Source: Caballeronia sp. NK8 (GTDB lineage Bacteria; Pseudomonadota; Gammaproteobacteria; Burkholderiales; Burkholderiaceae). From it: DNA of 64,000 bases. Made by a program: the position numbers and the translations under genes. The notes below the pieces were generated by a model. The model saw only the letters and a program-made list of their open reading frames with translations. It was not told where the DNA came from and searched no databases. Positions 16,981 to 44,901 of the stretch are shown here, piece after piece. Location: the NCBI RefSeq assembly GCF_018408855.1, contig NZ_AP024327.1, forward strand, positions 558,001 to 622,000, in the 5' to 3' direction. Positions within the stretch are counted from its first letter, which is position 1. Every line of letters starts with the position of its first letter.

Positions 16981-17121
16981 TTTCTGATCCCGCAAATCGA
17001 CCCTGTCTGTCTTAAGCCGACAGCCCTCCGTATCCTGTCTCCCGTCATCCGACACATCGACTCCCGTCGAGCACCCGCGTATCGACTCAAAACTGCGCCA
17101 AGCGCAGATATTTTCTCTTGC

Positions 17122-17180
17122 AATCAATCTCTTAGATTAACCGAACAGATCTTCTAGCCCTGTCTGGCACGCCCCTCGCA
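17122..17180 (+). promoter_or_regulatory. Sigma-54 promoter module of peptide array A (IHF site, GATTAACCGAA box, -24/-12)
   Basis: The -24/-12 element TGGCACG-CCCC-TCGCA (17165-17180) has GG and GC exactly ten bases apart; the -12 half is TCGC rather than TTGC. Twenty bases from its start is the box GATTAACCGAA (17135-17145), directly preceded by a perfect IHF consensus AATCAATCTCTTA (17122-17134). The same order and spacing recurs before 28293 and 29014. Predicted start of transcription is about 17191, giving a 58-base leader. No activator gene is adjacent. Confidence 0.75.
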
Positions 17181-17248
17181 TATGTAGCTGCGAGCGCAAC
17201 GATTGGTGCTCAACCAACCACCAAACCAGATACCCCAGGAGCTACATC

Positions 17249-17506
17249 ATGTTGAAGATCGACAACCTCGCAGTCAGCAAAGAACTCGGCCGCGCTGAAA
17301 TGGGCGCCATCGTCGGCGGCGCGAGCATCTTCCAGAACAACGGCATCAACTCCAACTACAACGGCGGCTTCTCGTTCGCCAGCCCGCAAACGAACGTCGC
17401 TCCCGTGACGCAAGTCGACGCTTCGCAACACACCGACGTCGACGTGAAGAACATCACCAAGTCGCTCGCTTCGGTCGGCAGCCTGCTCGGCGGCGTGGCG
17501 CTCTAA
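17249..17506 (+). CDS. Double-glycine leader peptide, copy A1
   Basis: An 85-residue small protein. Residues 1-24 form a leader ending AEMGAIVGG with Glu at -8, Met at -7, Ile at -4, Gly-Gly at -2/-1 and Leu at -12, the ComC/bacteriocin pattern cleaved by C39-peptidase ABC exporters. The predicted 61-residue secreted part starts ASIFQNNGINSN, lacks cysteine, is rich in Asn, Ser, Thr and Val, and ends in a hydrophobic SVGSLLGGVAL tail. The SD is AGGAG nine bases upstream. It is the first of three genes in a 296-bp tandem array under a sigma-54 promoter. Function is not recognised; bacteriocin, signal or matrix peptide are all possible. The protein is identical to copy B1. Confidence 0.8.
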   Translation: MLKIDNLAVSKELGRAEMGAIVGGASIFQNNGINSNYNGGFSFASPQTNVAPVTQVDASQHTDVDVKNITKSLASVGSLLGGVAL

Positions 17507-17544
17507 ACCCTCATCCATTCATTCAAGTCCTCAGGAGAACCATC

Positions 17545-17802
17545 ATGTTGAAGATCGACAACCTCGCAGTCAGCAAAGAACTCGGCCGTGCAGAAATGGG
17601 CGCCATCGTCGGCGGCGCGAGCATCTTCCAGAACAACGGCATCAACTCCAACTACAACGGCGGCTTCTCGTTCGCCAGCCCGCAAACCAACGTCGCTCCG
17701 GTGACGCAAGTCGATGCCTCGACGCACACGAACGTCGATCTGACGAACATCACGAAGTCGCTGACGTCGGTTGGCAGCGTGCTCGAAGGCGTGAAGCTCT
17801 AA
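17545..17802 (+). CDS. Double-glycine leader peptide, copy A2
   Basis: This copy has the same leader and first core segment as A1. The tail differs: STHTNVDLTNITKSLTSVGSVLEGVKL replaces the A1 version, so charge is altered and Gly-Gly near the end becomes Glu-Gly. It follows A1 by 38 bases, with its own AGGAG ribosome site, and the A1-to-A2 start distance is exactly 296 bases. The protein is identical to copy B2. Confidence 0.8.
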   Translation: MLKIDNLAVSKELGRAEMGAIVGGASIFQNNGINSNYNGGFSFASPQTNVAPVTQVDASTHTNVDLTNITKSLTSVGSVLEGVKL

Positions 17803-17840
17803 ACCCTCATCCATCCATTCAAGTCATCCGGAGAACCATC

Positions 17841-18098
17841 ATGTTGAAGATCGACAACCTCGCAGTCAGCAAAGAACTCGGCCGTGCAGAAATGGGCGCT
17901 ATCGTCGGCGGCGCGAGCATCTTCCAGAACAACGGCATCAACTCCAACTACAACGGCGGCTTCTCGTTCGCCAGCCCGCAAACGAACGTCGCTCCCGTGA
18001 CGCAAGTCGATGCTTCGCAACACACCGACGTCGACGTGAAGAACATCACGAAGTCGCTCGACGCTGTCGGCAGCCTGCTCGGCGGCGTGAAGCTGTAA
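17841..18098 (+). CDS. Double-glycine leader peptide, copy A3
   Basis: Last gene of array A. Leader and core resemble A1; the tail reads SLDAVGSLLGGVKL. It begins 296 bases after A2 with the ribosome site CCGGAGAACC. A hairpin terminator follows 13 bases after the stop. The protein is identical to copy B3, and the few nucleotide differences between them are synonymous. Confidence 0.8.
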   Translation: MLKIDNLAVSKELGRAEMGAIVGGASIFQNNGINSNYNGGFSFASPQTNVAPVTQVDASQHTDVDVKNITKSLDAVGSLLGGVKL

Positions 18099-18110
18099 GC
18101 GTTACCCCGC

Positions 18111-18148
18111 GAAGGGAGAGGGAGCAACATTGTCTCCTTCTCCCCTTC
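18111..18148 (+). terminator. Hairpin terminator after array A
   Basis: GAAGGGAGAGGGAG pairs with CTCCTTCTCCCCTTC around a 9-base loop, with one G-T wobble. It has no long T-tract but sits directly after copy A3, in the same position as the hairpins after copies B0 and B4. Confidence 0.65.
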
Positions 18149-18257
18149 ATCGAAGGTCCTCTCTCTGAATTTTCCGGCCCTCGCGCGCAATGCGCGGATC
18201 TACGCGGCCACCGTTTCCTTCCGTTTCGAAATCCGACGCCTCAGGGCAATCGCCTAG

Positions 18258-18328
18258 TTGACAGCGTCATTTTTGACTCCCTACACTGCATACATCGCTG
18301 CACACATTTAAATACGCAAACATGTGTG
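18258..18328 (+). promoter_or_regulatory. Promoter and candidate operator of the hydroxyproline operon
   Basis: TTGACA (18258-18263) and TACACT (18282-18287) are spaced by 18 bases and fit a sigma-70 promoter. Just downstream, CACACAT (18301-18307) and ATGTGTG (18322-18328) form an inverted repeat, a plausible operator for the GntR repressor encoded at the end of the operon. The first gene starts at 18379. Confidence 0.45.
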
Positions 18329-18378
18329 GTGCAAATTCCGATGTCATATGCGGGTTTACTCTTATTCGGGAGTCGATC

Positions 18379-19212
18379 ATGGTTCAGTTGTCCCGTTTCA
18401 CCCTTCGTGCTGTCGCGTGCCTGGCATTTGTCGGCTTGGCGGCCGCCCATACGCCCGTTCGGGCCGAAGACGGCAGTGCCTGGCAAAGCGTGAAGAAGGC
18501 TGGCGTGCTTCGTTGCGGTGCCGCGGTCGCGCCGCCGTACGTGATGCGCGACCCGAAGACGGGCGATTACAGCGGCTTCTTTTCGGAGTTGTGCCGCAAC
18601 TTCGGGCAGAACGTACTGAAGGTGAAGGTCGAGTTCGTCGATACGACATGGGACAACATCGTCGCCGGCCTGCAATCGGACAAGTGGGATCTGTCGATGG
18701 CGCTGAATCAGACACCGGAGCGCGAAAAAGCGGTCTCGTTTTCGACGCCCGCGACGGACTACAACGTGTCGTTTGTCTATAACAAGAACAACCCGAAGAT
18801 CCCCAAGGGCGCGCGCAGCATCGCCGACATCGACAAGCCGGGCGTGACAGTCGCCGTGATGTCGGGCGCGGCGCAGGACAAGGCGATCACGGCGACATTG
18901 AAGCAGGCGCGCATCATGCGGCTGCCGGGCAACGACGAAACCCGCCTCGCGCTGATGTCGAAGCGCGCCGATCTTCTCGCCGATGCCAACATCACCAACA
19001 TGCTCCTGACCGAGGCGCATCCCGACTGGGCCGCGACGGTCCAGCCGAGTCCGCCACTCGCGCAACAGGAAGTCGCGTTCGGCGTGCGCAAGGAAACCTC
19101 CGCCGCCGATCTCGCCGTGCTCAACGATTTCGTGAACTCGCAAGTCAGAACGGGCGCTGTCGACAAACTCATCAAGACGTCTGTCCAGGCGATGCTGGTC
19201 GCAAACAAGTGA
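18379..19212 (+). CDS. Amino-acid ABC transporter substrate-binding protein (family 3)
   Basis: A 277-residue periplasmic protein. A Sec signal of about 28 residues (LRAVACLAFVGLAAAHTPVRA) precedes the family 3 binding fold, which starts KKAGVLRCGAAVAPPYVMRDPKTGDYSGF and includes DLSMALNQTPEREKAVSFSTPATDY. The start at 18379 has GGGAG upstream; the frame is open further 5' without a ribosome site. It is the first gene of a ten-gene operon of transport, hydroxyproline catabolism and regulation, so hydroxyproline or proline isomers are the probable ligand. Two hairpins follow before the ATPase gene, as is common after abundant binding proteins. Confidence 0.85.
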   Translation: MVQLSRFTLRAVACLAFVGLAAAHTPVRAEDGSAWQSVKKAGVLRCGAAVAPPYVMRDPKTGDYSGFFSELCRNFGQNVLKVKVEFVDTTWDNIVAGLQSDKWDLSMALNQTPEREKAVSFSTPATDYNVSFVYNKNNPKIPKGARSIADIDKPGVTVAVMSGAAQDKAITATLKQARIMRLPGNDETRLALMSKRADLLADANITNMLLTEAHPDWAATVQPSPPLAQQEVAFGVRKETSAADLAVLNDFVNSQVRTGAVDKLIKTSVQAMLVANK

Positions 19213-19235
19213 TGTAACGCGCCAATTCGCGCCGT

Positions 19236-19287
19236 GTTCGATTCTCTTCGAACAGGATACCTAAGCATCGCGCGCTCTTTAGCGCGC
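19236..19287 (+). promoter_or_regulatory. Intercistronic hairpins after the binding-protein gene
   Basis: GTTCGA/TCGAAC (19236-19253) and GCGCGCT/AGCGCGC (19270-19287, 4-base loop) lie in the 91-base gap between SBP and ATPase genes. Such stems usually protect the upstream mRNA or partly terminate, raising the SBP:ATPase ratio. Confidence 0.5.
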
Positions 19288-19303
19288 TTGCTGGAGAGAT
19301 TTC

Positions 19304-20137
19304 ATGCTGTCATCGCAAACCATGATCGCTCAACACGACGTTCCGCCGGCGGTGATCGACTTTTCGCCTTCGACATCCGGCGAGTTCGTGCAATTCAGTG
19401 ATGTCTACAAGTCCTATGGCGAGAATCTGGTCGTCATGGATCACATGAACCTCGACATGCGCGAGGACGACCGCCTCGTCATCATCGGCCCGAGCGGCAG
19501 CGGCAAGAGTTCGCTACTGCGCGTCATGATGGGACTCGAAGGCATTCAGGGCGGACAAATCGGGTTTCAGGGCAAGCCGTATATCTTCGGCGCCGACGCG
19601 GGACGCGCGAAGCGTATCGACGCGAAGCTGCAAAAGCAGATCGGCATGGTGTTTCAGCACTACACGCTGTTTCCGCATCTGTCCGTGCTGGGCAATCTGA
19701 TTCTCGCGCCGGTCAAGGTGGGCGGCCTCTCGAAAGCCGAAGCGACCGAGCGCGCGCGCCTGTATCTCGCGCGGCTCGGTCTCGAAAGCAAGTTGCACGC
19801 ATATCCGAGCCAGCTTTCGGGCGGCCAGAAGCAGCGCGTCGCGATTGCCCGCGCACTGATGCTCGAACCGAAGCTGATGCTGTTCGACGAAGTCACCTCC
19901 GCGCTCGATCCGGAGATGGTCATCGAAGTCCAGAACGTGATGCTCCAGCTCGCCGAACAGAAGATGGCGATGATCATCGTCACGCACGACATGCACTTCG
20001 CCCGCGATATCGCCACGCGCGTGGTGTTCTGCGCGAGCGGCAAGATCGTGGAACAGGGCGCGCCCGCCGACATGTTCAAGTGCCCGAAGCAGGCTCGCAC
20101 GCGCGAGTTCCTCGAGAAAGTGCTGCATCTCGACTGA
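19304..20137 (+). CDS. Amino-acid ABC transporter ATP-binding protein
   Basis: A 277-residue cytoplasmic ATPase of the polar amino acid (GlnQ/HisP) class. Walker A is GPSGSGKSS, the Q-loop is MVFQHYTLFPH, the ABC signature LSGGQKQRVAIARAL, and Walker B LMLFDEVTSALDPE, followed by the H-loop IVTHDMHFARDI. An N-terminal extension of about 30 residues before the core is slightly longer than usual. GGAGAG lies upstream of the ATG. It works with the two permeases that follow directly. Confidence 0.9.
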   Translation: MLSSQTMIAQHDVPPAVIDFSPSTSGEFVQFSDVYKSYGENLVVMDHMNLDMREDDRLVIIGPSGSGKSSLLRVMMGLEGIQGGQIGFQGKPYIFGADAGRAKRIDAKLQKQIGMVFQHYTLFPHLSVLGNLILAPVKVGGLSKAEATERARLYLARLGLESKLHAYPSQLSGGQKQRVAIARALMLEPKLMLFDEVTSALDPEMVIEVQNVMLQLAEQKMAMIIVTHDMHFARDIATRVVFCASGKIVEQGAPADMFKCPKQARTREFLEKVLHLD

Positions 20138-20145
20138 GGCTCGAC

Positions 20146-20817
20146 ATGAACTATCAATTCGATTTCCGCTTTCTCGAAGGCAGCTTCGGCGCCCTGCTCG
20201 ATGGCCTCCGGGTCACGATCGAACTGGCCGCCGCATCGAACCTCATGGGCCTCGTGCTCGGCTTCGCGCTCTGTCTTCTGGCGATGAGCCGCTGGACGAT
20301 CGTGCGCTGGCCGGCGCAGTTGTTCATCGAATTTTTCCGCTGCACGCCGGCGCTCCTGCAGATCGTCTGGTTCTTCTACTGCGTGCCGATGATGGTCGAC
20401 GTATTCATCGACCCGATCCTGATGGGCGTGCTCGCGCTCGGGCTCAATCTCACCGCATTCAATGCGGAAGCCTACCGCGCGGGCGTGCAGGCCGTGCCGA
20501 AGGAGCATCTCGACGCCTGCGTCGCGCTCGGTCTCAAGCCCTGGCAGCGCACGATGTATGTGGTCCTGCCGCAGGCGCTGCGCACCGCGATGCCCGTGCT
20601 GATGACCAACGGCATCGGCAGTCTGCAGCAGAGCGCGCTCGTCGCCATCGTCGCGGTGGCGGACCTGATGTATGTGGGCAAGAGCCTCGCGACCGAAGCG
20701 TATCGGCCGCTCGAAACCTACACCGTCGTCGCGCTGATCTATTTCGCGCTGTCCCTGCCGATCGCGAAGCTCGTCCATGTGATCGAGCGCCGCCAGGACC
20801 TCGCGGTCGAGCGTTGA
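20146..20817 (+). CDS. Amino-acid ABC transporter permease 1
   Basis: A 223-residue HisM/GlnP-type permease with about five membrane helices. The EAA loop that contacts the ATPase reads EAYRAGVQAVPKEHLDACVALGL. The start at 20146 (MNYQFDF) lies eight bases after the ATPase stop; the frame is open upstream inside the ATPase gene. It pairs with the permease at 20828 to form the channel. Confidence 0.88.
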   Translation: MNYQFDFRFLEGSFGALLDGLRVTIELAAASNLMGLVLGFALCLLAMSRWTIVRWPAQLFIEFFRCTPALLQIVWFFYCVPMMVDVFIDPILMGVLALGLNLTAFNAEAYRAGVQAVPKEHLDACVALGLKPWQRTMYVVLPQALRTAMPVLMTNGIGSLQQSALVAIVAVADLMYVGKSLATEAYRPLETYTVVALIYFALSLPIAKLVHVIERRQDLAVER

Positions 20818-20827
20818 GGAGAGGACC

Positions 20828-21493
20828 ATGCAACTCGACTTTTCCGCCGTTTTCCCCTACTGGCTCGTGCTGCTCAAGGGGCTTGCATTGACCATCGCGT
20901 TCACCGGCAGTTGCGCCGTGATCGGCAGTCTCGCGGGCTTCGTGCTGAGCCTGTTGCGCATGTCGCCCTCGCGCTGGATGAAAGCGGCGACCACGCTCTA
21001 TGTGGAGTTCTTTCGCGGCACGCCGCTGTTGATTCAGCTCTTCTGGGTGTTCTTCTGTTTCCCGGTCGTCTTTCACCTTCCGCTTCCGCCGTATGTGTCG
21101 GTCGTGATCTCGTTGACGCTCTACATGGCGGCGATCACCAGCGAAACGTTTCGCGGCGCGCTCAAATCGATCTCCGCCGAACAGCACGACGCCTGCATCG
21201 CGCTGAGTCTCTCGCCGCAGGCCAAGATTCTTTATGTGATCTTCCCGCAAGCGCTGCTGCGCGCGATTCCGCCGCTGCTATCCAACGTCGTCAGCCTGTT
21301 CAAGGAAAGCGCGCTGATCTCCTCGGTGGGCGTCGCGGACCTGATGTTCGTCGGCCAGAACATCTCGAACAGCACGGCCAAGCCGGTGGAGTTCCTGACG
21401 ACCGTTGCGATCATTTACTTCCTCGTCGCTTTTCCGCTCACGCGTCTCGTCGGCGTGGTCGAGATGCGATTGCTCAGGCGTTACGCCTACTAA
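20828..21493 (+). CDS. Amino-acid ABC transporter permease 2
   Basis: A 221-residue permease of the same family, starting ten bases after permease 1 with a GAGGAGAGG ribosome site. Its EAA loop is ETFRGALKSISAEQHDACIALSL. The arrangement of SBP, ATPase and two permeases gives a full polar amino acid importer feeding the enzymes encoded downstream. Confidence 0.88.
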   Translation: MQLDFSAVFPYWLVLLKGLALTIAFTGSCAVIGSLAGFVLSLLRMSPSRWMKAATTLYVEFFRGTPLLIQLFWVFFCFPVVFHLPLPPYVSVVISLTLYMAAITSETFRGALKSISAEQHDACIALSLSPQAKILYVIFPQALLRAIPPLLSNVVSLFKESALISSVGVADLMFVGQNISNSTAKPVEFLTTVAIIYFLVAFPLTRLVGVVEMRLLRRYAY

Positions 21494-21529
21494 CCCCAAT
21501 CAACGACTCATCGTTCAATGGAGCAACTC

Positions 21530-22408
21530 ATGCAGATGAAAGGCATTCTTCCCGCACTCGTCACGCCGTTCGGCAGTTCCGGCGCGGTCGATCACGACAC
21601 GCTCGCGAACCTCGTCGAATTTCAGTTGAAGGCCGGCGTCAAGGGCTTCGTGCCGCTCGGCTCGACGGGCGAATACTACGCGCTCACCCACGACGAGCGC
21701 CGCGCGATCCTGAAGACCGTGCGCGAAGTCGTCGGCGAGCGCGGGATGCTGATCGGCGGCGCGAACGGATCGTGCACGCGCGAGGTCATCGAACAGACGC
21801 AACTGGTTCGCGACGCGGGCTACAAGACCGTTCTCATCGCGCCGCCGTACTACGCGCTGCCGTCGCAACAGGAACTGATCGGCCATTACGACGCGATTCT
21901 CAAGGCGGTGCCGGACGCCGATCTCGTGCTGTACAACTATCCCGTGCGCACGAACGTGGAAGTCGGCTTCGAAGTGCTCGAAGCGTTCAAGGACCACCCG
22001 CGCGTGGTCGGCATCAAGGAAAGCAGCGGCAATCTGCTGCGCGCGATCGAAATCGGCGAGAAGTACAAGGATCACTATCAGCTTTCCTGCGGCTCCGACG
22101 ACCAGGCGCTCGACTTCTTCCTGTGGGGCGCGTCGAGCTGGATCTGCGGTCCCGCAAACTGCTTCGTGAAGCACGTCGTGGACTTCCATGCCAGGTTCGA
22201 GTCAGGCGACATTCGCGGCGCGCAGGACGTGATGCGCTCGCTCTTCCCCGTCATGGCGACGATGGAATCCGGCAAGTTCGTGCAGAAGGTGAAGTACGGG
22301 TGCGAACTCGCGGGCTTCAAGGTCGGGGCCGCGCGCATGCCGCTGCAGCCGCTCACGGATGACGAGAAGGCGGCGTTCCGCGAGGTGTTCGAAGCGGCGC
22401 AAGGTTGA
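21530..22408 (+). CDS. DHDPS-family lyase, probable pyrroline-4-hydroxy-2-carboxylate deaminase
   Basis: A 292-residue TIM-barrel class I aldolase of the DapA/NanA family. It has the GSTGE motif (44-48), catalytic Tyr135 in LYNYPVRT and Schiff-base Lys163 in [10 protein letters not shown]. In hydroxyproline clusters this family converts 1-pyrroline-4-hydroxy-2-carboxylate to 2-oxoglutarate semialdehyde and ammonia, and the neighbours fit that role rather than lysine synthesis. The start at 21530 is preferred because TGGAG lies six bases upstream; an in-frame ATG at 21518 lacks one. Confidence 0.8.
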
Positions 22409-22430
22409 CGATATCGAGCGGGGCATCCGG

Positions 22431-23447
22431 ATGAGCACACATCACTTCAAGAGCATCGAAGGACATACCGAGGGCATGCCGGTACGCATGGTGATCGACG
22501 GCGCGCCGCCGCTTGCCGGCGCGACCATGGAAGCGCGTCGCAAGGCGTTCGTCGAGCATCACGACTGGATTCGCCGCGCGCTGATGCTGGAGCCGCGCGG
22601 GCACGCGCACATGTCGGGCACGCTGCTCTATCCGCCCATTTCCGTCGACGCGGACATGAGCCTGCTGTTCATCGAAACGTCGGGCTGCCTGCCGATGTGC
22701 GGCCATGCATCGATCGGCTCGGTGTCCTTCGCGCTCGAAGCGGGGCTCGTGCGGCCGAAGTCGCCGGGCACGGTCATCGTCGACGTGCCCGCCGGCAAGC
22801 TCACCGCGAAGGTCGAGATGGACGGCGCGCGCGTGTCATCGGTGCGCTTCACCAACGTGCCGGGCTTCCTGCTTCACCGCGATGTCGAGATCGTGCATCC
22901 GCATTTCGGCGCGCTTGCCGTCGATATCGCGTACGGCGGAAACTTCTATCCGATCGTCGAGGTGCAACCGAATTTCCCGGGCTGCGAGCACTTCACGCCG
23001 GATCAACTGCTGGCCTGGGGCCGGCAGATGCAAACGGCCGTGAACGCTACGATCGACGTGATTCATCCGGATCATCCGGGCATACGCGGCGTGAATCACA
23101 CGATGTGGACAGGCGCGCCCATGTCGAATGACGCCGATGCGCGCGCGGTCGTCATCGCAGGTGACAGTCTTGTCGATCGTTCGCCGTGCGGGACCGGTAC
23201 CTCGGCCCGCGTCGCGCAACGGCACGCGCGCGGGCTGCTCGATATCGGTCAGGCGTTCCGTCATCAAAGCCTGATCGGCAGCTGTTTCATCGGACGGGTC
23301 GAATCGACGACGAAACTCACGAACGGTCTCGACGCCGTTCTGCCCAGCGTCGAAGGCCGCGCGTGGCTGACCGGGCGCGCGGAGTATTACGTCGATGACG
23401 CGCAGCCCTACGCTCATGGCTTCAGCTTGCAGGAGTATGTGAAGTGA
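22431..23447 (+). CDS. 4-hydroxyproline 2-epimerase (proline racemase family, Cys/Cys)
   Basis: A 338-residue cytosolic ProR-superfamily enzyme. Both catalytic cysteines are present: Cys90 in PMCGHAS and Cys253 in DRSPCGTGT. The His after the first Cys (MCGH) is the usual hydroxyproline epimerase signature. It should interconvert trans-4-hydroxy-L-proline and cis-4-hydroxy-D-proline, the first catabolic step. The start at 22431 follows the previous stop by 22 bases. Its stop overlaps the GTG of the oxidase as GTGA, coupling the two consecutive enzymes. Confidence 0.85.
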
Positions 23448-24736
23448 ACGCCGTTCCTCGCGAAGTCTCCGCGCACCATCCGCTCCCTTTCAGCCAGGAA
23501 ACCGCCGTGGTGATCGGCGGCGGCATCGTCGGACTGTGCTGCGCGCTCTATCTGCAACGCGGCGGTTACGCCGTCACGCTGATCGACCCGCAAGCGCCGG
23601 GCAACAGCACGGCCAAATGGAGCTGCGGCCAGATGGCGGTGAGCGAGATCATTCCGCTGTCGAAGCCCGGCATTCTGATGAAGATACCCGGCTGGCTCAT
23701 GGATCAGAAGGGTCCGCTCGCGCTGCGTCCGCGCGCGCTGCCGGGCATCGTCCCGTGGTTTCTCCGCTTTCTCATGTGCGCGCGGCACGCGAAGATCGTC
23801 GAGATCGCGCAGTCGATGGCCACGCTCACGCACGACGTCTATAGCGACTACGCGCCGCTGCTCGACGCCTGCGCCGACAAGACGTTGCTCGGCGAACGCC
23901 CCGTTCTCGAAGTCTTCGACGATCCTGTCGCGCTGACGCGCGAAGCGCCGCATCTCGCGCTGCGCGAATCGCTCGGCTTCAAGTCGCAGCGGCTGAATGC
24001 GAAAGACATCGGCGATCTCGAACCGGCGCTCGCGGGCAAGTTCTCGCATGGCGTCATGTTCGACGACTGGCGCGCCGTGAAAGACACGATGGGCTTCCTT
24101 ACCGCGCTGACCGATAGCTTCATCGCGCAAGGCGGACGGCGCGTGGAAAGCGAAGCGCGCCGCATCGACGAATCGAACGGACAGGCGACCGGCGTCACGC
24201 TCGCCAACGGCGAACGGCTGGCTGCACGGCATGTCGTCGTGGCCGCGGGCACCGGCGCGCGGCGCTTCTTCGATTCGCTCGGCGTGAACGTGCCCCTCGC
24301 GGGCATCGCGGGTTATCAGGCGGTCGTGTCGGACCCGGGCGTCGAGATTCGCCATTCGGTCATCTATGCGGACGGCGGCTTCTGCTTCACGCCGATGACG
24401 CGCGGGCTGCAGATCGGCGGCACGATCGAATTCGCGGGACACGGCGCGAAGCCCAACTTCGGGCGCGCGGAGATCATCCTCGAGAAGGCGAAGCGCGTAT
24501 TGCCCGGGATGCGCGCGACGCAGGTCGAGTACGGCGTCGGCTATCGGCCATTCATGCCCGACACGAAGCCCGTCATCGACCGCTCGCGCAGGCTCGGCAA
24601 TGTGTACATGGCGTTCGGTCACGGCCAGCTCGGACTCACGCTCGGCGCGACCACCGGGCGGCTGATCGCGGACATGGTCGCGGGTCGCGCGACAAAGCAA
24701 AACCTCGCGCCGTTCAGCGCCTATCGCTTTTCCTGA
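23444..24736 (+). CDS. FAD-dependent D-hydroxyproline oxidase/dehydrogenase (DadA-like)
   Basis: A 430-residue D-amino-acid dehydrogenase-type flavoprotein, with GTG as start. The Rossmann dinucleotide motif is [27 protein letters not shown] (about 22-48). A conserved C-terminal FAD/substrate segment reads [42 protein letters not shown]. In this cluster it should oxidise cis-4-hydroxy-D-proline to 1-pyrroline-4-hydroxy-2-carboxylate, passing electrons to the respiratory chain or oxygen. No separate small electron-transfer subunits are encoded, so it is the single-subunit type. Confidence 0.82.
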
Positions 24737-24748
24737 CGAGACGAATTC

Positions 24749-26230
24749 ATGAAATCGTATGAACAACTTTTCATCGACGGACGCTGGGTCGCACCCGTCA
24801 GGGCCGGCCGCTTCGACACCATCGATCCGAGTAACGAGGAAGTCATTGCGAGCGTGGCGGCGGCGACGGCCGAGGATATCGATATCGCGGTGAAGGCCGC
24901 GCGCAAGGCCTTCGACGAAGGCCCGTGGCCGCGCATGCGCGGCGCCGAGCGCGCGGCCGTGTTGCGCCGTATCGGCAAGGGCATTCGCGAACGTCTTCAG
25001 GAACTCGCGGAAATCGAAGTGCGCGACAACGGCAAGCCGCTTGCCGAAGCGCTCTGGGATCTGGGCGATGCCGCCGGTTGCTTCGAGTACTACGCCGGTC
25101 TCGCGGAGAAGCTCGATGAGCACGCGGAAACGCCCATCGCACTCTCCGACGACCGTTTCAGCTCGGTCGCGCGCAAGGAGCCGGTCGGCGTCGCGGGCGC
25201 GATCATTCCGTGGAATTTCCCGATGCTGATGGCCGCGTGGAAAGTCGCGCCTGCGCTGGCCGCAGGCTGCACGATGGTTCTGAAGCCCTCGGAGCTGACG
25301 CCGCTCACGGCGCTCGAACTCGCCGGCATCGCCGCGAACGCGGATCTGCCGCCGGGCGTGCTCAATGTCGTGACGGGATTCGGCCATGACGCGGGCGCGC
25401 CCTTGAGCGAGCATCCGGGCATCGACAAGCTCGCGTTCACCGGCAGCGTGCCGACCGGCAGCCGCATCATGCAGGCCGCCGCGCGCGACATCAAGAACGT
25501 GAGTCTCGAACTGGGCGGCAAGTCGCCGTTCATCGTCTTCGATGACAGCGATATCGATGCGGCCGTCGAATGGATCATGTTCGGCATCTTCTGGAATCAG
25601 GGCGAAGTGTGTTCGGCCACGTCGCGCGTGCTCGTGCAGCGCGGCATCCATGACCGGCTGGTGGATCGGCTGAAAGAGGAAACGCGCAGGATCACCATCG
25701 GCAATGGACTTCAGGACGGTGTGCTGCTCGGCCCGCTCGTCAGCAAGGGGCAATACGACAAGGTGCGTGAAGCCGTCGAGCGCGGCGTGAGCGAAGGCGC
25801 GCGCCTCGTCACGGGCGGCGGACGGCCCGCGCATCTCGACAAGGGCTACTTCATGGAACCCGTCGTGTTCGCGGACGTGCCCGCCGATAGCTGGATCTGG
25901 AACGAAGAGATTTTCGGGCCGGTCGTGTGCATCCGTGCTTTCGATGAGGAATCCGAAGCCGTTCGGTATGCCAACGATTCCCGCTTTGGTCTTGCAGCGG
26001 CCGTGATGTCGCGCAATCTCGCACGCTGCGAGCGTGTCGCGCGGGCGTTGCGCGCGGGCATCGTGTGGATCAATTGCAGCCAGCCGACTTTCACCGAAGC
26101 GCCGTGGGGCGGCTACAAGCAAAGCGGCATCGGCCGCGAACTCGGCGAGTGGGGTTTGAACAACTATCTCGAGACCAAGCAGATCACGCGCTACGACAGC
26201 GACAAGCCGTGGGGCTGGTACATCAAATAA
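24749..26230 (+). CDS. Aldehyde dehydrogenase, probable 2-oxoglutarate semialdehyde dehydrogenase
   Basis: A 493-residue NAD(P)-dependent aldehyde dehydrogenase. The cofactor site includes IIPWNFPM, the general-base Glu254 is in SLELGGKSP, and the nucleophile Cys288 in NQGEVCSA. Overall it looks closest to betaine/gamma-aminobutyraldehyde-type ALDHs, but its position after the deaminase and oxidase implies oxidation of 2-oxoglutarate semialdehyde to 2-oxoglutarate, the final step of hydroxyproline degradation. It begins 12 bases after the oxidase stop. Confidence 0.82.
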   Translation: MKSYEQLFIDGRWVAPVRAGRFDTIDPSNEEVIASVAAATAEDIDIAVKAARKAFDEGPWPRMRGAERAAVLRRIGKGIRERLQELAEIEVRDNGKPLAEALWDLGDAAGCFEYYAGLAEKLDEHAETPIALSDDRFSSVARKEPVGVAGAIIPWNFPMLMAAWKVAPALAAGCTMVLKPSELTPLTALELAGIAANADLPPGVLNVVTGFGHDAGAPLSEHPGIDKLAFTGSVPTGSRIMQAAARDIKNVSLELGGKSPFIVFDDSDIDAAVEWIMFGIFWNQGEVCSATSRVLVQRGIHDRLVDRLKEETRRITIGNGLQDGVLLGPLVSKGQYDKVREAVERGVSEGARLVTGGGRPAHLDKGYFMEPVVFADVPADSWIWNEEIFGPVVCIRAFDEESEAVRYANDSRFGLAAAVMSRNLARCERVARALRAGIVWINCSQPTFTEAPWGGYKQSGIGRELGEWGLNNYLETKQITRYDSDKPWGWYIK

Positions 26231-26241
26231 GGCCAACGACC

Positions 26242-27273
26242 ATGCGCTGGAAAAAGACGCTTCAACTCGTCGACGTGCATTGCGAAGGCGAAATCGGCAA
26301 GGTGATCACCGGAGGTGTCATCGGCATTCCGGGCGAAACCATGCTCGACAAGATGAACTACATCAACGAAGTGGACGACAGCCTGCGCCGGCTCGTCACG
26401 CTGGAGCCGCGCGGCTGTCTGCAGATGTCGGTGAATCTATTGCTTGCGCCGACGAAACCCGAAGCGCATGCGGGGTTCATCGTGCTGCAATCGGACAAGG
26501 CGCATCCGATGTCCGGCAGCAACGCGATCTGCGTCGTCACCGCGTTACTCGAACTCGGCATGGTCGAGATGCGCGAGCCGGAAACGACCGTCGTGCTCGA
26601 CACGCCCGCGGGACTCGTCACCGCGCGCGCGTCCTGCAAGGACGGACGCTGCACGGGTGTGTCACTGGACATGGTGCCCGCGTTCGTCGAGCAACTGGAT
26701 GTGAATGTCGAGACCGCGCGCTTCGGGACGATCAAGGCGGACATCGCGTTCGGCGGCGTGTATTACGCGCTGATCGATGTCGACCAGGTCGGGCTCGCGA
26801 TCGCGCCCGAGCACGCGCGCGAGCTTGCCGAGCTGGGGGTCGCGCTGAAGGACATCATCAACGGGCAGATTCGCGTTCGGCATCCGCTCTTTCCGCAGAT
26901 CGACGAAGTCGCCTATGTCATGTTCCGCAATCGCCTCGGCGACGCGCTGTATCAGACCTGCACGACGCTGCCTCCGGGACGCGTCGATCGATCGCCGTGC
27001 GGCACCGGCAGTTCGGCCAATCTCGCGGCCTTGGCGGCGCGCGGACTGGTCGATGTCGGCAGCCGGCTGACATCGCGTTCGACCATCGGCGGCGAATTCG
27101 AAGTCGAATTGCTCGGCAAGACCGAAGTCGGCGGCAAACCGGCCGTGCTGCCGCGCATTCGCGGGCGCGCGTGGGTGTACGGATTCCAGCAGATCGGCGT
27201 CGATCCCGACGATCCGCTCGCCGCCGGTTTCATGCTGAGCGATACTTGGGGCACCGGCTTCCCGGCCGCCTGA
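26242..27273 (+). CDS. Proline racemase-family paralog with Ser/Cys pair (probable trans-3-hydroxy-L-proline dehydratase)
   Basis: A 343-residue second ProR-superfamily enzyme. The first catalytic residue is Ser91 (HPMSGSN) instead of Cys, while Cys253 is kept in DRSPCGTGS. In the superfamily a Ser/Cys pair is reported for enzymes with trans-3-hydroxyproline dehydratase and some 4-hydroxyproline epimerase activity. Substrate range is inferred only. A dehydratase product (pyrroline-2-carboxylate) would need a reductase, and none is seen in the window. The start at 26242 follows the ALDH gene by 11 bases. Confidence 0.78.
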   Translation: MRWKKTLQLVDVHCEGEIGKVITGGVIGIPGETMLDKMNYINEVDDSLRRLVTLEPRGCLQMSVNLLLAPTKPEAHAGFIVLQSDKAHPMSGSNAICVVTALLELGMVEMREPETTVVLDTPAGLVTARASCKDGRCTGVSLDMVPAFVEQLDVNVETARFGTIKADIAFGGVYYALIDVDQVGLAIAPEHARELAELGVALKDIINGQIRVRHPLFPQIDEVAYVMFRNRLGDALYQTCTTLPPGRVDRSPCGTGSSANLAALAARGLVDVGSRLTSRSTIGGEFEVELLGKTEVGGKPAVLPRIRGRAWVYGFQQIGVDPDDPLAAGFMLSDTWGTGFPAA

Positions 27274-27345
27274 GACGGAGCGCGCACGATGATAAACTTG
27301 AACGCGCGCCCGTCTTTCCGGGCCCACGACGACGGCGGTGAATAC

Positions 27346-28053
27346 ATGAGCAAAGGGACCACGGAGACCGAGAACGGTCCTCGCCGGCATGGCGGACGGT
27401 ACATCTACGAAGCGTTGCGCAAGCAGATCCTGACCTTGCAACTCAAACCGGGCGCACCGCTCGACGAAGTCTCGCTGGCGGCGCAATTCGGGCTGTCCCG
27501 CTCGCCCGTGCGCGATGCGCTCGCGCGTCTCATCAGCGAAGGGCTGGTCACGATCCTGCCTAACCGCACGACGCTCGTCACGCCGTTCGAAATCGAGGAG
27601 TTCCCGAAATACGTGTCGGCGCTGGACCTCATCCAGCGCGCGGTCACGCGTCTTGCGGCGCTGCATCGGAGCGAGGCCGATCTCGCGCGCATCCGCAAAG
27701 CCGACGACACCTACATGCAGGCCATCGACAGCGGCGATTTCAATGCGATGTCCGAGACCAACAAGGCCCTGCACATGGCCATCGCGCATGCGGCGAACAA
27801 CCCGTATTTCCTCGGCTATTACGAGCGCCTCCTCGGCGAGGGGCAGCGTCTGCTGCATCTGCATTTCGATTACACCGTGACATCGCCGTCGGCGACGAAA
27901 CTGGGCCGCGATCACGCCGACATCATCGATGCGATCGCACGCCGGGACGCGGACGCCGCGGAGAAACTCGCGCACGAACACACGATGCTGTTCCAGAAGC
28001 GCTTCCTCGACTACATGCGGCAAAACATGACTGAGTCGATGGCGATTCTGTAG
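27346..28053 (+). CDS. GntR-family (FadR subgroup) regulator of the operon
   Basis: About 235 residues: a winged helix (YIYEALRKQILTLQLKPGAPLDEVSLAAQFGLSRSPVRDALARLISEGLVTILPNR) followed by an all-helical FCD ligand domain with the metal-binding His pattern (HMAIAHAANN, DHADIIDAI). It is last in the operon and likely autoregulates it in response to a hydroxyproline intermediate, perhaps through the inverted repeat near 18301-18328. The start is ambiguous: ATG 27289 has GGAG eight bases upstream and would add 19 residues. Confidence 0.8.
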   Translation: MSKGTTETENGPRRHGGRYIYEALRKQILTLQLKPGAPLDEVSLAAQFGLSRSPVRDALARLISEGLVTILPNRTTLVTPFEIEEFPKYVSALDLIQRAVTRLAALHRSEADLARIRKADDTYMQAIDSGDFNAMSETNKALHMAIAHAANNPYFLGYYERLLGEGQRLLHLHFDYTVTSPSATKLGRDHADIIDAIARRDADAAEKLAHEHTMLFQKRFLDYMRQNMTESMAIL

Positions 28054-28172
28054 CCTGTCTGCGGTGCACCGACACGTCTTCGCCGGTTGTCTTCCGACGC
28101 CCAACGGATCGAACGAGCCAGCGCCGCGCGATTTGCCCGAAATTCGTTCAGCCATGTTTTATTTGCCTTGAA

Positions 28173-28231
28173 CTTCAACGAGTTGGATTAACCGAAGTGT
28201 TCCTCCAGATACGGCTGGCACGGCCCTCGCA
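28173..28231 (+). promoter_or_regulatory. Sigma-54 promoter module of singleton peptide gene B0
   Basis: TGGCACG-GCCC-TCGCA (28216-28231) keeps the GG-N10-GC spacing. GATTAACCGAA is at 28186-28196, again 20 bases from the -24 GG-containing motif, preceded by a degenerate IHF-like CTTCAACGAGTTG (28173-28185). Conservation of the box where surrounding bases differ argues that it is functional. Confidence 0.72.
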
Positions 28232-28292
28232 TATAGAGATGCGAGCGCAACGATTGGTGCTCATCCAACCAACCAAGTCCAGGAGACACATC

Positions 28293-28550
28293 ATGCTGAA
28301 GATCGACAACCTCGCCGTTAGCAAAGAACTCGGCCGCGCAGAAATGGGCGCCATCGTCGGCGGCGCGAGCATCTTCCAGAACAACGGCATCAACTCCAAC
28401 GCCGTGAGCGGCTTCTCGTTCGCCAGCCCGCAGACCAACGTCGCGCCGGTGACGCAAGTCGATGCCTCGACCCACACGAACGTCGATCTGACGAACGTCA
28501 CGAAGACGCTCGCTTCGGTCGGCAGCCTGATCGAAGGCGCGAAGCTGTAA
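28293..28550 (+). CDS. Double-glycine leader peptide, copy B0 (singleton)
   Basis: An 85-residue paralog with the same 24-residue leader but a divergent core: NAVSGFSF replaces NYNGGFSF, and the tail is TNVTKTLASVGSLIEGAKL. It has its own sigma-54 promoter module and a strong terminator, so it is a separate transcription unit between the hydroxyproline operon and array B. The start at 28293 has AGGAGAC upstream; the frame is open further 5' but the leader alignment fixes the start. Confidence 0.8.
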   Translation: MLKIDNLAVSKELGRAEMGAIVGGASIFQNNGINSNAVSGFSFASPQTNVAPVTQVDASTHTNVDLTNVTKTLASVGSLIEGAKL

Positions 28551-28563
28551 AGCATCGTCCTCG

Positions 28564-28608
28564 AAGGGGAGAAGGAACCGCGCTGGTTCCTTCTCCCCTT
28601 TTCTTTTT
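28564..28608 (+). terminator. Rho-independent terminator after copy B0
   Basis: A perfect 16-bp stem (AAGGGGAGAAGGAACC with its complement), a 5-base loop and a T-rich run (TTCTTTTT). The rest of the 28551-29013 gap holds the array B promoter and no convincing gene. Confidence 0.92.
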
Positions 28609-28886
28609 CCTCTGCTGCACATCCCCTTTCCTTCTGCTGTTCTTCTGCCCGCTTCGGTTTGGCGGCGCGTCCGCATCATTTCTTCATCATTCCGGATACC
28701 GAAGCATTTTCGAGTTTCGTCGTGCGATCTCGTGTGGCTTTGTCTTCCTGCCGTGGTCCGATCGTGCATGTTCGTCATCATCCGACACCATCCGGTTTTC
28801 TGTTGTTCGTCGACCAACACCTCGCGCAGACGAAACCGCCTCAAACGGCCGTGAAATCCGCATCGCTCAACTTTATTTCGCTTGAA

Positions 28887-28945
28887 AATCAATACACTAG
28901 ATTAACCGAACCGATTTTCCACCCGCGCCTGGCACGCCCCTCGCA
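28887..28945 (+). promoter_or_regulatory. Sigma-54 promoter module of peptide array B
   Basis: TGGCACG-CCCC-TCGCA at 28930-28945, GATTAACCGAA at 28900-28910 and an IHF-like AATCAATACACTA (one mismatch) at 28887-28899. Order and spacing are identical to those before array A. The first gene starts at 29014, the same 70 bases from the -12 C as in array A. Confidence 0.75.
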
Positions 28946-29013
28946 TATGTAGCTGCGAGCGCAACGAAAGATGCTCAACCAACCACCAAACCAGATATCC
29001 CAGGAGCTACATC

Positions 29014-29271
29014 ATGTTGAAGATCGACAACCTCGCAGTCAGCAAAGAACTCGGCCGCGCAGAAATGGGCGCCATCGTCGGCGGCGCGAGCATCTTCCAG
29101 AACAACGGCATCAACTCCAACTACAACGGCGGCTTCTCCTTCGCCAGCCCGCAAACCAACGTCGCTCCGGTGACGCAAGTCGATGCTTCGCAACACACCG
29201 ACGTCGACGTGAAGAACATCACCAAGTCGCTCGCTTCGGTCGGCAGCCTGCTCGGCGGCGTGGCGCTCTAA
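29014..29271 (+). CDS. Double-glycine leader peptide, copy B1
   Basis: First gene of array B, protein-identical to A1. Five nucleotide differences from A1 were found by eye, all synonymous. SD AGGAG precedes the ATG, and the leader region upstream is also nearly the same as that of A1. Confidence 0.8.
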   Translation: MLKIDNLAVSKELGRAEMGAIVGGASIFQNNGINSNYNGGFSFASPQTNVAPVTQVDASQHTDVDVKNITKSLASVGSLLGGVAL

Positions 29272-29309
29272 ACCCTCATCCATTCATTCAAGTCCTCAGG
29301 AGAACCATC

Positions 29310-29567
29310 ATGTTGAAGATCGACAACCTCGCAGTCAGCAAAGAACTCGGCCGTGCAGAAATGGGCGCTATCGTCGGCGGCGCGAGCATCTTCCAGAACA
29401 ACGGCATCAACTCCAACTACAACGGCGGCTTCTCGTTCGCCAGCCCGCAAACGAACGTCGCTCCCGTGACGCAAGTCGATGCCTCGACGCACACGAACGT
29501 CGATCTGACGAACATCACGAAGTCGCTGACGTCGGTTGGCAGCGTGCTCGAAGGCGTGAAGCTCTAA
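29310..29567 (+). CDS. Double-glycine leader peptide, copy B2
   Basis: Protein-identical to A2 (tail SLTSVGSVLEGVKL), 296 bases after B1. Three synonymous nucleotide differences from A2 were found by eye. The 38-base spacer and the AGGAG site are conserved. Confidence 0.8.
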   Translation: MLKIDNLAVSKELGRAEMGAIVGGASIFQNNGINSNYNGGFSFASPQTNVAPVTQVDASTHTNVDLTNITKSLTSVGSVLEGVKL

Positions 29568-29605
29568 ACCCTCATCCATCCATTCAAGTCATCCGGAGAA
29601 CCATC

Positions 29606-29863
29606 ATGTTGAAGATCGACAACCTCGCAGTCAGCAAAGAACTCGGCCGTGCAGAAATGGGCGCTATCGTCGGCGGCGCGAGCATCTTCCAGAACAACGG
29701 CATCAACTCCAACTACAACGGCGGCTTCTCGTTCGCCAGCCCGCAGACCAACGTCGCTCCGGTGACGCAAGTCGATGCCTCGCAACACACCGACGTCGAC
29801 GTGAAGAACATCACGAAGTCGCTCGACGCTGTCGGCAGCCTGCTCGGCGGCGTGAAGCTCTAA
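29606..29863 (+). CDS. Double-glycine leader peptide, copy B3
   Basis: Protein-identical to A3 (tail SLDAVGSLLGGVKL), 296 bases after B2. About five synonymous differences from A3. Unlike A3 it is not the last gene; the usual spacer leads to B4. Confidence 0.8.
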   Translation: MLKIDNLAVSKELGRAEMGAIVGGASIFQNNGINSNYNGGFSFASPQTNVAPVTQVDASQHTDVDVKNITKSLDAVGSLLGGVKL

Positions 29864-29901
29864 ACCCTCATCCATTCATTCAAGTCATCCGGAGAACCAT
29901 C

Positions 29902-30159
29902 ATGTTGAAAATCGACAACCTCGCAGTCAGCAAAGAACTCGGTCGCGCAGAAATGGGTGCCATCGTCGGCGGCGCGAGCATCTTCCAGAACAACGGCATC
30001 AACTCCAACTCGGTGAGCGGCTTCTCGTTCGCCAGCCCGCAAATCAACGTCGCACCGGTGACTCAGGTCGACGCATCGCAATACACGAAGGTCGATCTGA
30101 CGAACGTCACGAAATCGATCGATGCCATCGGCAGCCTCCTGCATGGCGTGAAGGCCTAA
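29902..30159 (+). CDS. Double-glycine leader peptide, copy B4
   Basis: Last and most divergent member of array B. The leader is unchanged, but the core carries NSVSGFSF, ASPQINV, QYTKVDLTNVTKSIDAIGSLLHGVKA. It resembles B0 in the SVSG/AVSG segment, suggesting B0 and B4 represent an older flanking set into which the A1-A3-like block was copied or from which it expanded. Confidence 0.8.
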   Translation: MLKIDNLAVSKELGRAEMGAIVGGASIFQNNGINSNSVSGFSFASPQINVAPVTQVDASQYTKVDLTNVTKSIDAIGSLLHGVKA

Positions 30160-40254: not shown

Positions 40255-40310
40255 ATGCGTGGGCGGGCCGTCCCGCCACGTGAGCATGCATGCCGGGGTC
40301 GTCCCCGGCA
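40255..40310 (-). promoter_or_regulatory. Paired intercistronic hairpins before the carboxylase gene
   Basis: TGCCGGGG/CCCCGGCA (40291-40310, TCGT loop) and a GCGGG/CCCGC stem (about 40257-40280) lie between the DUF1989 gene and the carboxylase gene. They may adjust downstream expression or stabilise the upstream mRNA; neither has a T-tract. Confidence 0.45.
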
Positions 40311-44526: not shown

Positions 44527-44630
44527 CTCTCCCGGGCTTTTGTCCCGCCGTGTAACCTCGCTTGAGGTCGACAACTCTCGGACCAGCATCGCGCATCGGA
44601 CATCGATGCGGACCGGAACCCTAGTCGTCC
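44527..44630 (-). ncRNA. Guanidine-I riboswitch (ykkC/yxkD aptamer)
   Basis: Read on the minus strand from 44630, the sequence has CTAGGGTTCCGG, then a variable stem, GGTCCGAGAGTTG, a second variable stem, and ACACGGCGGGAC followed by AAAAGCCCGGGAGA. These are the nearly invariant blocks of the guanidine-I class, in the right order and spacing. It lies 59 bases before the SBP start. No clear intrinsic terminator follows, so control is probably of translation. It reassigns the downstream urea carboxylase operon to guanidine. Confidence 0.93.
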
Positions 44631-44901
44631 ATTTCCAGATTGTGACTGCCACTCCTGAAAGCGCTTAATGCGATAAGCGTGCCAAGCCTGTAATTACGCG
44701 GGCTCGGCGGCGTGGACGCGGATTCGTGCACAGATACGAAGCGCCCCGCGCGATGCGCCTACGCACGGGCGCACCAAACGGGTGCCCGCATTCCAGTGGA
44801 ATGTCGCAATTCTTCTATCCGGGCGCGCCGGCTTTCGATGGAATACGGGACAGTCACGCGTTCCCGCAGCAACCCGCTTTCCTCTCACTTGGGTAACCAT
44901 C

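What the first reader, a model, noticed from the sequence alone, without database searches (positions are those of the whole stretch)
17249..30159. Eight-gene family of secreted-type peptides with double-glycine leaders in two tandem arrays
Eight 85-residue genes share an invariant 24-residue leader whose last part, LGRAEMGAIVGG, meets the C39-peptidase rule (Leu -12, Glu -8, Met -7, Ile -4, Gly-Gly). Leader and residues 25-36 do not vary, while residues 37-39 and the C-terminal 25 residues do, which suggests a constant export signal and first segment with a diversifying tail. The cores have no cysteine and do not look like a known bacteriocin. No peptidase-transporter is adjacent, so a dedicated exporter must act in trans or the GG motif has another use. 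Possible roles are contact or quorum signal, bacteriocin, or surface/matrix peptide.
Basis: partly seen in the sequence, partly recalled or inferred. Interest (0 to 1): 0.9.

Follow-up and report, generated by a model that had tools for sequence, protein, structure and literature searches.

The report
Exported peptide family with distant exporter
Eight near-identical small genes of a soil or symbiont bacterium most likely make short peptides that are cut and exported by a machine encoded elsewhere in the genome; peptide and machine genes appear to share one switch, which would let the whole set of such peptides be found from sequence.

Summary
In detail: eight 85-codon genes share an identical 24-residue double-glycine leader. 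It has three C39 loci; only one keeps the catalytic Cys and aligns with PCAT1. That exporter is on another contig, with TolC-like, FHA, HlyD, PPIase and sigma-54 activator genes. Links: eight further genes with the same leader grammar, two in the exporter cluster; shared leaders on unlike cores; exporter in 19 of 20 family-positive genomes of the genus and 22 of 22 outside it (six of those family matches are weak); linkage within about 10-21 kb in another genus. Each window unit has a sigma-54 site and one or two TGTY-N11-RACA dyads at fixed distance, as do 57 of 62 family promoters. A strict dyad-plus-sigma-54 pattern hits this genome five times, always before a double-glycine gene, but has no power outside the genus. 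Export in trans and co-regulation are well supported; activator binding is inferred; the extracellular role is unknown, a biofilm or surface role favoured over bacteriocin.

The parts
17249..17506 (+). GG-leader peptide gene 1 (85 aa; first gene of unit 1)
17545..17802 (+). GG-leader peptide gene 2
17841..18098 (+). GG-leader peptide gene 3
28293..28550 (+). GG-leader peptide gene 4 (unit of its own)
29014..29271 (+). GG-leader peptide gene 5 (same protein as gene 1)
29310..29567 (+). GG-leader peptide gene 6 (same protein as gene 2)
29606..29863 (+). GG-leader peptide gene 7 (same protein as gene 3)
29902..30159 (+). GG-leader peptide gene 8
17165..17180 (+). sigma-54 -24/-12 site of unit 1 (11 of 12 scored positions)
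28216..28231 (+). sigma-54 site of gene 4 (11 of 12)
28930..28945 (+). sigma-54 site of unit 5-8 (11 of 12)
17004..17022 (+). upstream dyad TGTY-N11-RACA, distal copy, unit 1
17036..17054 (+). upstream dyad, proximal copy, unit 1 (G000:C6:575036)
28056..28074 (+). upstream dyad, gene 4 (single copy found)
28769..28787 (+). upstream dyad, distal copy, unit 5-8
28801..28819 (+). upstream dyad, proximal copy, unit 5-8
17122..17134 (+). IHF-like site between dyads and promoter (consensus recalled; inference)
   Evidence: sequence seen
17190..17211 (+). conserved 5' untranslated element GCGAGCG...GCTC, shared by three genera; possible small hairpin, not folded here

Best explanation
The eight genes encode precursors of short (61-residue) cysteine-free extracellular peptides. 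The 24-residue leader is recognised by the C39 peptidase domain of one exporter encoded elsewhere in the genome (two cNMP domains, C39 and ABC in one chain, with HlyD, a TolC-like protein and a PpiC-type isomerase), cut after Gly24 and exported through the type I channel. The genes are read by sigma-54 RNA polymerase from promoters with one or two TGTY-N11-RACA dyads about 32 bp apart. [quoted passage not shown] Cyclic-nucleotide-type, FHA and PP2C domains in the cluster suggest control by a nucleotide and by phosphorylation. Outside the cell the peptides most likely act as a redundant multi-copy surface or biofilm component. Shown by sequence: genes, leader, exporter anatomy, sigma-54-like sites, dyads, co-occurrence. 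Inferred: cleavage and export, identity of the activator, IHF, signal inputs, extracellular role.
For: Exporter: three C39 matches in the genome. The C2 locus aligns with PCAT1 including Cys, His and Asp; the other two lack the Cys by eye, one in an RTX-like locus, one a truncated fusion. C39-ABC, HlyD, PPIase, FHA, PP2C and activator by Pfam; TolC by eye. Leader: seven further GG-leader genes and one more, two of these eight in the exporter cluster; profile comparison of family and exporter-adjacent peptides matches 30 leader columns at E 2e-10 (pairwise) while cores give E 0.26. The leader fits the -12, -8, -7 and -4 positions reported for C39 recognition (PMC6363468, passages). Co-occurrence: both 19, family only 1, exporter only 23, neither 15, of 58 genus genomes; 22 of 22 family-positive genomes outside the genus, against the coupled activator gene in 27 of 135 genomes outside the genus in another draw (denominator). 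Linkage: in genus g11 the genes lie about 10-21 kb apart in the 7 of 10 positive genomes that have both on one contig; about 13 kb in a named Burkholderia stagnalis replicon. Promoters: sigma-54 sites at -84, -77 and -84 in the window and at about -76 to -87 in relatives; dyads in 57 of 62 family promoters, 0.033 expected per 220 bp. Strict composite pattern: 5 of 5 hits in this genome precede GG genes; 26 of 31 fetched genus loci do, 0 of 20 fetched loci outside. In B. stagnalis the TolC gene has a sigma-54 site with one-mismatch dyads at -161 and -128 from it.
Against: No direct evidence of cleavage, secretion or activator binding. G019 (3.9 Mb) has a family gene but no exporter. The genus association is modest (Fisher p 0.005), and no count is corrected for ancestry or genome reduction. 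Six of the 22 family-positive genomes outside the genus have only weak matches (best E 1e-12 to 1e-7), perhaps other GG genes. G044 lacks the exporter but has four leader-pattern sites. Outside the genus the strict pattern does not separate activator-positive from activator-negative genomes (all 150: 27 hits in 13 of 41 against 17 in 15 of 109; only 7 hits in the 27 positives outside the genus; reversed control 8 hits), and none of the 20 fetched loci there, five in activator-positive genomes, precedes a GG gene. Five of 31 fetched genus loci do not either. In this genome no sigma-54 site of score 10 or more was found directly upstream of TolC or FHA. L018 and L041 have a dyad but no sigma-54 site. 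Five of 62 family promoters lack the dyad. One-mismatch dyads also occur elsewhere, e.g. before C39 in B. stagnalis. The structure model is poor (pLDDT 51).
Confidence: 0.78

Rival explanations
1. The peptides are class II microcins or unmodified bacteriocins that act on related strains.
For: GG leader plus C39 type I exporter is the class II microcin layout (recalled); some UniRef names in the hit list say 'Bacteriocin'; a B. stagnalis homologue scores 14.5 bits against the bacteriocin signal model TIGR01847, under its 15.7 cut-off.
Against: Spacers of 38 bp leave no room for an immunity gene inside the units (flanks not excluded); cores are near neutral in hydropathy, pI 5.3-6.8, and no glycine zipper was found in 135 proteins; conserved cores with pN/pS below 1.
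Confidence: 0.25
2. The peptides are cell-to-cell signals, as some GG peptides are.
For: GG export of signal peptides is known in Gram-positives (PMC7595303, search listing); HetC, a cNMP-C39-ABC exporter, is proposed to export a differentiation signal (PMC10986499, abstract and Discussion).
Against: I saw no receptor-like gene among the neighbouring ORFs, without a systematic search; 61 residues is long for such a signal; up to 13 matches per genome.
Confidence: 0.18
3. The Gly-Gly leader is incidental and the proteins stay in the cytoplasm.
For: No proteomic evidence either way; no exporter seen beside the units in the window (by eye; none of the three C39 loci is on this contig).
Against: Gly-Gly is invariant while neighbours vary; leader shared with unlike cores; co-occurrence and linkage with the exporter; shared promoter elements.
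Confidence: 0.06
4. Export is as stated, but another sigma-54 activator drives the promoters.
For: Genomes encode many activators (up to 45 first-look candidates for this query among the rows listed); dyad binding was not tested; the strict pattern does not follow the activator outside the genus.
Against: The activator gene overlaps the exporter gene by 4 bp; in the genus the strict pattern gives 63 hits in 24 of 42 exporter-positive and 2 in 2 of 16 exporter-negative genomes.
Confidence: 0.2

Closest known systems
EbfG1-4 and PteB of Synechococcus elongatus (PMC4997328; abstract and passages)
   Same: Several small GG-motif proteins encoded together, proposed to be functionally redundant, whose efficient secretion needs the Cys of a C39 transporter.
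   Different: There a biofilm role is shown by mutation; here it is only proposed. Homology to EbfG was not tested. Sigma-54 control was not mentioned in the passages seen.
HetC of Nostoc PCC 7120 (PMC10986499; abstract and Discussion)
   Same: cNMP-type domain on an active C39 domain and ABC exporter; a Nostoc sp. HK-01 plasmid homologue is 44% identical to our exporter over residues 304-1017.
   Different: HetC has no membrane fusion protein gene nearby and no GG-leader gene was found near it; here HlyD is in the cluster and candidate substrates are named.
Cyanobacterial long-type C39 transporter clusters with SurA and HlyD (PMC3140520; passages)
   Same: C39 transporter with a long N-terminal extension, a rotamase protein and HlyD; GG leader consensus M(R/K)ELX3E(I/L)X2(I/V)XG(G/A).
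   Different: Precursors there were sought around the transporters; here they are scattered and tied by promoter elements, and FHA, PP2C and a sigma-54 activator are added.
Class II microcins (PMC9746304, search listing and start of abstract; otherwise recalled)
   Same: GG leader and C39 type I exporter.
   Different: No immunity gene inside the units; other cores; sigma-54-type promoters.
CdzC/CdzD of Caulobacter (PMC5380434; passages)
   Same: Small proteins with G[G/A/S] leaders and a type I system.
   Different: The glycine zipper is absent here (0 of 135).

Membership tests
Double-glycine (GG) precursor peptides of C39 exporters | Leader with Leu-12, acidic -8, hydrophobic -7 and -4, Gly-2, Gly/Ala-1 | tested here: met
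   8 of 8; 132 of 135 proteins fit the leader expression
Double-glycine (GG) precursor peptides of C39 exporters | A C39 exporter with catalytic residues in the same genome | tested here: met
   presence in 19 of 20 genus genomes and 22 of 22 outside; the residues were checked in this genome only
Double-glycine (GG) precursor peptides of C39 exporters | Cleavage after GG and secretion | not testable with these tools
   needs mass spectrometry of supernatants
Peptidase-containing ABC transporters (PCAT) | C39 domain with catalytic residues, ABC membrane and ATPase domains in one chain | tested here: met
Class II microcins | Linked immunity gene | tested here: inconclusive
   no room inside the units (38 bp); ORFs under 60 aa in the flanks were not listed
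Class II microcins | Antibacterial activity | not testable with these tools
   no assay
Cdz-type contact-dependent bacteriocins | Extended glycine zipper GxxxGxxxG in the core | tested here: not met
   0 of 135 cores
EbfG-type biofilm proteins | Several co-encoded GG proteins that need a C39-Cys transporter | tested here: inconclusive
   co-encoded genes seen; need for the transporter untested
EbfG-type biofilm proteins | Required for biofilm | not testable with these tools
   no assay
Sigma-54 promoters | GG and GC dinucleotides 12 bp apart in a TGGCACG-N4-TTGCW context | tested here: met
   (consensus recalled; transcription itself untested)
Curated RiPP or bacteriocin precursor families | Match to a curated model | tested here: not met
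   no Pfam or NCBIfam family at E up to 1 for three window proteins; a distant homologue falls under the cut-off of TIGR01847

The most novel reading that the evidence does not exclude
A secretion regulon in Burkholderiaceae in which one exporter serves several unlike peptide cargos scattered over several contigs, joined only by a shared leader and by a shared cis-code (TGTY-N11-RACA dyads at fixed distance from a sigma-54 promoter) that is read by an activator encoded in the exporter cluster, with nucleotide and phosphorylation inputs. In this genome the strict code alone predicts cargo: 5 of 5 hits precede GG-leader genes, with five cores that look unrelated by eye.
Probability: 0.7. Interest if true: 0.75.

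Novelty: new variant of a known kind. Interest (0 to 1): 0.66.

Why it matters
GG peptides of Gram-negatives are commonly sought beside their exporter; [quoted passage not shown] Here leader grammar and promoter code together point to cargo encoded far away, in a bacterial family that includes insect and plant symbionts. If confirmed, it gives a sequence rule for listing an organism's exported peptides, at least within this genus, and a direct genetic test of what they do.

Tried and rejected
One search used a leader pattern one base out of frame and served only as an extra control (2 hits). Homology of the family cores with those of the exporter-adjacent peptides looked possible by eye, but profile comparison gives E 0.26. 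The structure model was uninformative (pLDDT 51), so no fold search was run. Positive selection on the tail was tested and not found (genes not exactly 255 nt long were dropped; one search was a failed first version whose pattern caught only the eight window genes). The Paraburkholderia phymatum RpoN paper has no mention of bacteriocin, type I secretion or double-glycine in its main text (PMC5979394, term counts and passages). A microcin screen from plant-associated bacteria does not mention Burkholderia, Caballeronia or Paraburkholderia (PMC13174018, term counts and passages). No held paper has both Caballeronia and double-glycine, or Caballeronia with bacteriocin and type I secretion. Wider searches showed no paper on this system judging by the titles and abstract starts of the rows listed; most of these lists were capped. 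PADLOC gave no assignment for the peptide. L013 and L014 were set aside as exporters of these peptides because their C39-like domains lack the Cys by eye and L014 is truncated. The strict composite pattern was tried as a family-wide classifier and failed outside the genus. The direct sigma-70 and terminator scan of unit 1 added nothing.
Full report
OBSERVATION. The window holds eight + strand genes of 85 codons and a genome search finds exactly these eight. The first 36 residues are identical in all. Genes 5-7 encode the same proteins as genes 1-3, with 13 mismatches in 850 bp. Spacers within units are 38 bp; gene 4 stands 463 bp before gene 5.

FAMILY. A protein search found 189 relatives; the organisms named among the 120 listed are Caballeronia or Burkholderia sp. 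SFA1 and KK1. A scan of species genomes gave 29 loci, in Caballeronia (two species under Burkholderia names) and in Candidatus Paraburkholderia kirkii (records very near the window's genome may be left out there). In the genus 20 of 58 genomes have strong matches and 3 more only weak ones. With a profile that includes two Burkholderia stagnalis homologues, 44 of 398 genomes of the family, from 5 genera, match at E 1e-6. Of these, two in the genus (G011, G014) and six outside (G072, G310, G314, G338, G381, G384) have only weak matches, and two of the five genera (g16, g20) rest on a weak match alone. Double glycine is invariant in the 28 and 22 sequences aligned, while position 22 varies and position 25 varies or is missing. 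Synteny in the named loci: in many species the genes lie between a hydrolase gene and an SDR gene; the metabolic cluster and the alkyl sulfatase of this window are optional inserts.

EXPORTER. Three Peptidase_C39 matches exist in the genome. The strongest belongs to a 1019-aa protein with cNMP-binding (two stretches), C39, ABC membrane and ATPase domains. Its C39 domain aligns with PCAT1, including Cys, His and Asp (residue roles recalled). On the same strand lie a TolC-like protein (by eye), an FHA protein, HlyD, a PpiC-type isomerase, the exporter and a sigma-54 activator whose gene overlaps that of the exporter by 4 bp. A PP2C gene preceded by a GG-leader gene lies on the other strand, and another GG-leader gene precedes TolC. 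The other two C39 matches are an RTX-like type I locus and a truncated fusion; both lack the Cys by eye.

LINK BETWEEN THEM. (a) Other GG-leader genes with the same grammar exist here. The pattern gives 35 sites (8 are the family) against 2 for the reversed control; 7 of the other 27 were kept by eye for ORF context, and one more, before TolC, was found. (b) Family and exporter-adjacent peptides share the leader (E 2e-10 over 30 columns, a pairwise comparison) but not the core (E 0.26). (c) Of 58 genus genomes 19 have both, 1 family only, 23 exporter only, 15 neither; Fisher p 0.005 (strong family matches only; one exporter, in G042, is partial, and G015 with broken fragments is counted as lacking it). 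The exception is G019, 3.9 Mb. Among genomes without the family, exporter-positive ones have a mean of 3.74 leader-pattern sites (n 23) and exporter-negative ones 0.67 (n 15), p 1e-6; all 58 genomes together have 270 hits against 4 reversed-control hits. G044 lacks the exporter but has four sites. Several negatives are small genomes, so ancestry and size confound this. (d) Outside the genus 22 of 22 family-positive genomes have the exporter at 74-81% identity, one of them in part; counting strong family matches only, 16 of 16. In another draw the coupled activator is present in 27 of 135 genomes outside the genus (denominator). (e) In genus g11 the genes lie about 10-21 kb apart in the 7 of 10 positive genomes that have both on one contig; in three g3 genomes they lie about 21 kb apart (the match list is capped). 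In the named B. stagnalis replicon the distance is about 13 kb.

PROMOTERS. Each of the three window units has a sigma-54-like site matching 11 of 12 scored positions, 77-84 bp before the start codon; only five sites score 11 or more on both strands of the whole window, and three are these. In the named loci, 34 of 44 first genes with enough upstream sequence score 10 or more; of the other ten, three score 9 at the same place and seven are inner genes or lie at contig ends. The consensus is recalled and the scan demands GG and GC, so those four bases are not independent evidence; the fixed position is. Upstream, TGTY-N11-RACA dyads lie mostly at -159 to -162 and -127 to -129 from the -24 element (about -150 and -117 in genus g3). 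They occur in 57 of the 62 family promoters that had a site of score 9 or more and 300 bp of upstream sequence, and near all five other sigma-54-type GG genes of this genome (L028 at an unusual -269); 0.033 are expected per 220-bp window. Gene 4 has one dyad, the other two units have two. The motif was noticed by eye in these same promoters, so one search is not an independent test of its existence. The strict composite pattern is the more independent test. In this genome it has 5 hits, each before a GG-leader gene. In the genus it has 63 hits in 24 of 42 exporter-positive and 2 hits in 2 of 16 exporter-negative genomes, reversed control 3. Of 31 genus loci fetched (of 65 hits) 26 precede a GG ORF; of 20 loci fetched outside the genus none does. 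In 150 family genomes it gives 27 hits in 13 of 41 activator-positive and 17 in 15 of 109 activator-negative genomes, reversed control 8; only 7 of the 27 hits are outside the genus. So the strict form has no power there; family promoters of other genera use TGTT or AACA variants. In B. stagnalis TolC has a sigma-54-like site at -108 and one-mismatch dyads at -161 and -128 from it, though a one-mismatch dyad also turned up before C39. In this genome the peptide gene before TolC has a dyad and a sigma-54-like site at -88, while none of score 10 or more was found directly before TolC or FHA; that the operon is read from the peptide gene's promoter is inference.

SELECTION. Over 75 distinct genes of 255 nt pN/pS is 0.16 in the leader and 0.39, 0.22 and 0.54 in residues 25-36, 37-59 and 60-85. 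All are below 1: constraint, loosest at the tail.

MECHANISM AND ROLE. The export step follows what is reported for C39 domains (PMC6363468, passages). HetC binds ppGpp in vitro, and its peptidase residues are needed for heterocyst differentiation (PMC10986499, abstract), which suggests nucleotide control here; untested. FHA and PP2C suggest phosphorylation control; untested. The role outside the cell is open. Several GG proteins that enable biofilm in Synechococcus (PMC4997328, passages) are the nearest working model; a bacteriocin is less likely without immunity genes inside the units and without a glycine zipper.

NAMES. That g11 is Burkholderia is inferred from the close likeness of its peptides to those of B. 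stagnalis. That the window is from a Caballeronia close to C. pedi is inferred from two C. pedi loci that match gene 1 at 100%.

Noticed in passing
18322-28053: A metabolic cluster that looks like hydroxyproline use sits between unit 1 and gene 4; several other species lack it at this place. Only the solute-binding protein and GntR genes were checked against Pfam; the rest is by eye.
   Followed up: partly
40263-40310 and 44527-44635, minus strand: Guanidine-II and Guanidine-I riboswitches about 4 kb apart.
   Followed up: no
17190-17211 and relatives: A 5' untranslated stretch with invariant GCGAGCG and GCTC in ten promoters from three genera could form a small hairpin.
   Followed up: partly
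17249-18098 against 29014-29863: Two three-gene blocks 12 kb apart differ at 13 of 850 bases, which suggests recent duplication or gene conversion.
   Followed up: partly
L012:3241-3744 (own genome, contig C2): A 167-aa protein that looks LRAT- or NlpC/P60-like by eye, with a sigma-54-like site scoring 10 upstream; similar sites recur in relatives.
   Followed up: no
L013 and L014 (own genome): An RTX-like type I locus with a large repeat protein, and a remnant in which a C39-like exporter runs into an outer membrane factor.
   Followed up: no
L018 and L041 (own genome): Two GG-leader genes of another core type have a dyad 242 and 213 bp upstream of the start but no recognisable sigma-54 site.
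   Followed up: partly
L072 and G019: Candidatus Paraburkholderia kirkii keeps one family gene with its promoter; the 3.9-Mb genome G019 keeps one although it lacks the exporter. That the two are the same organism is a guess.
   Followed up: partly
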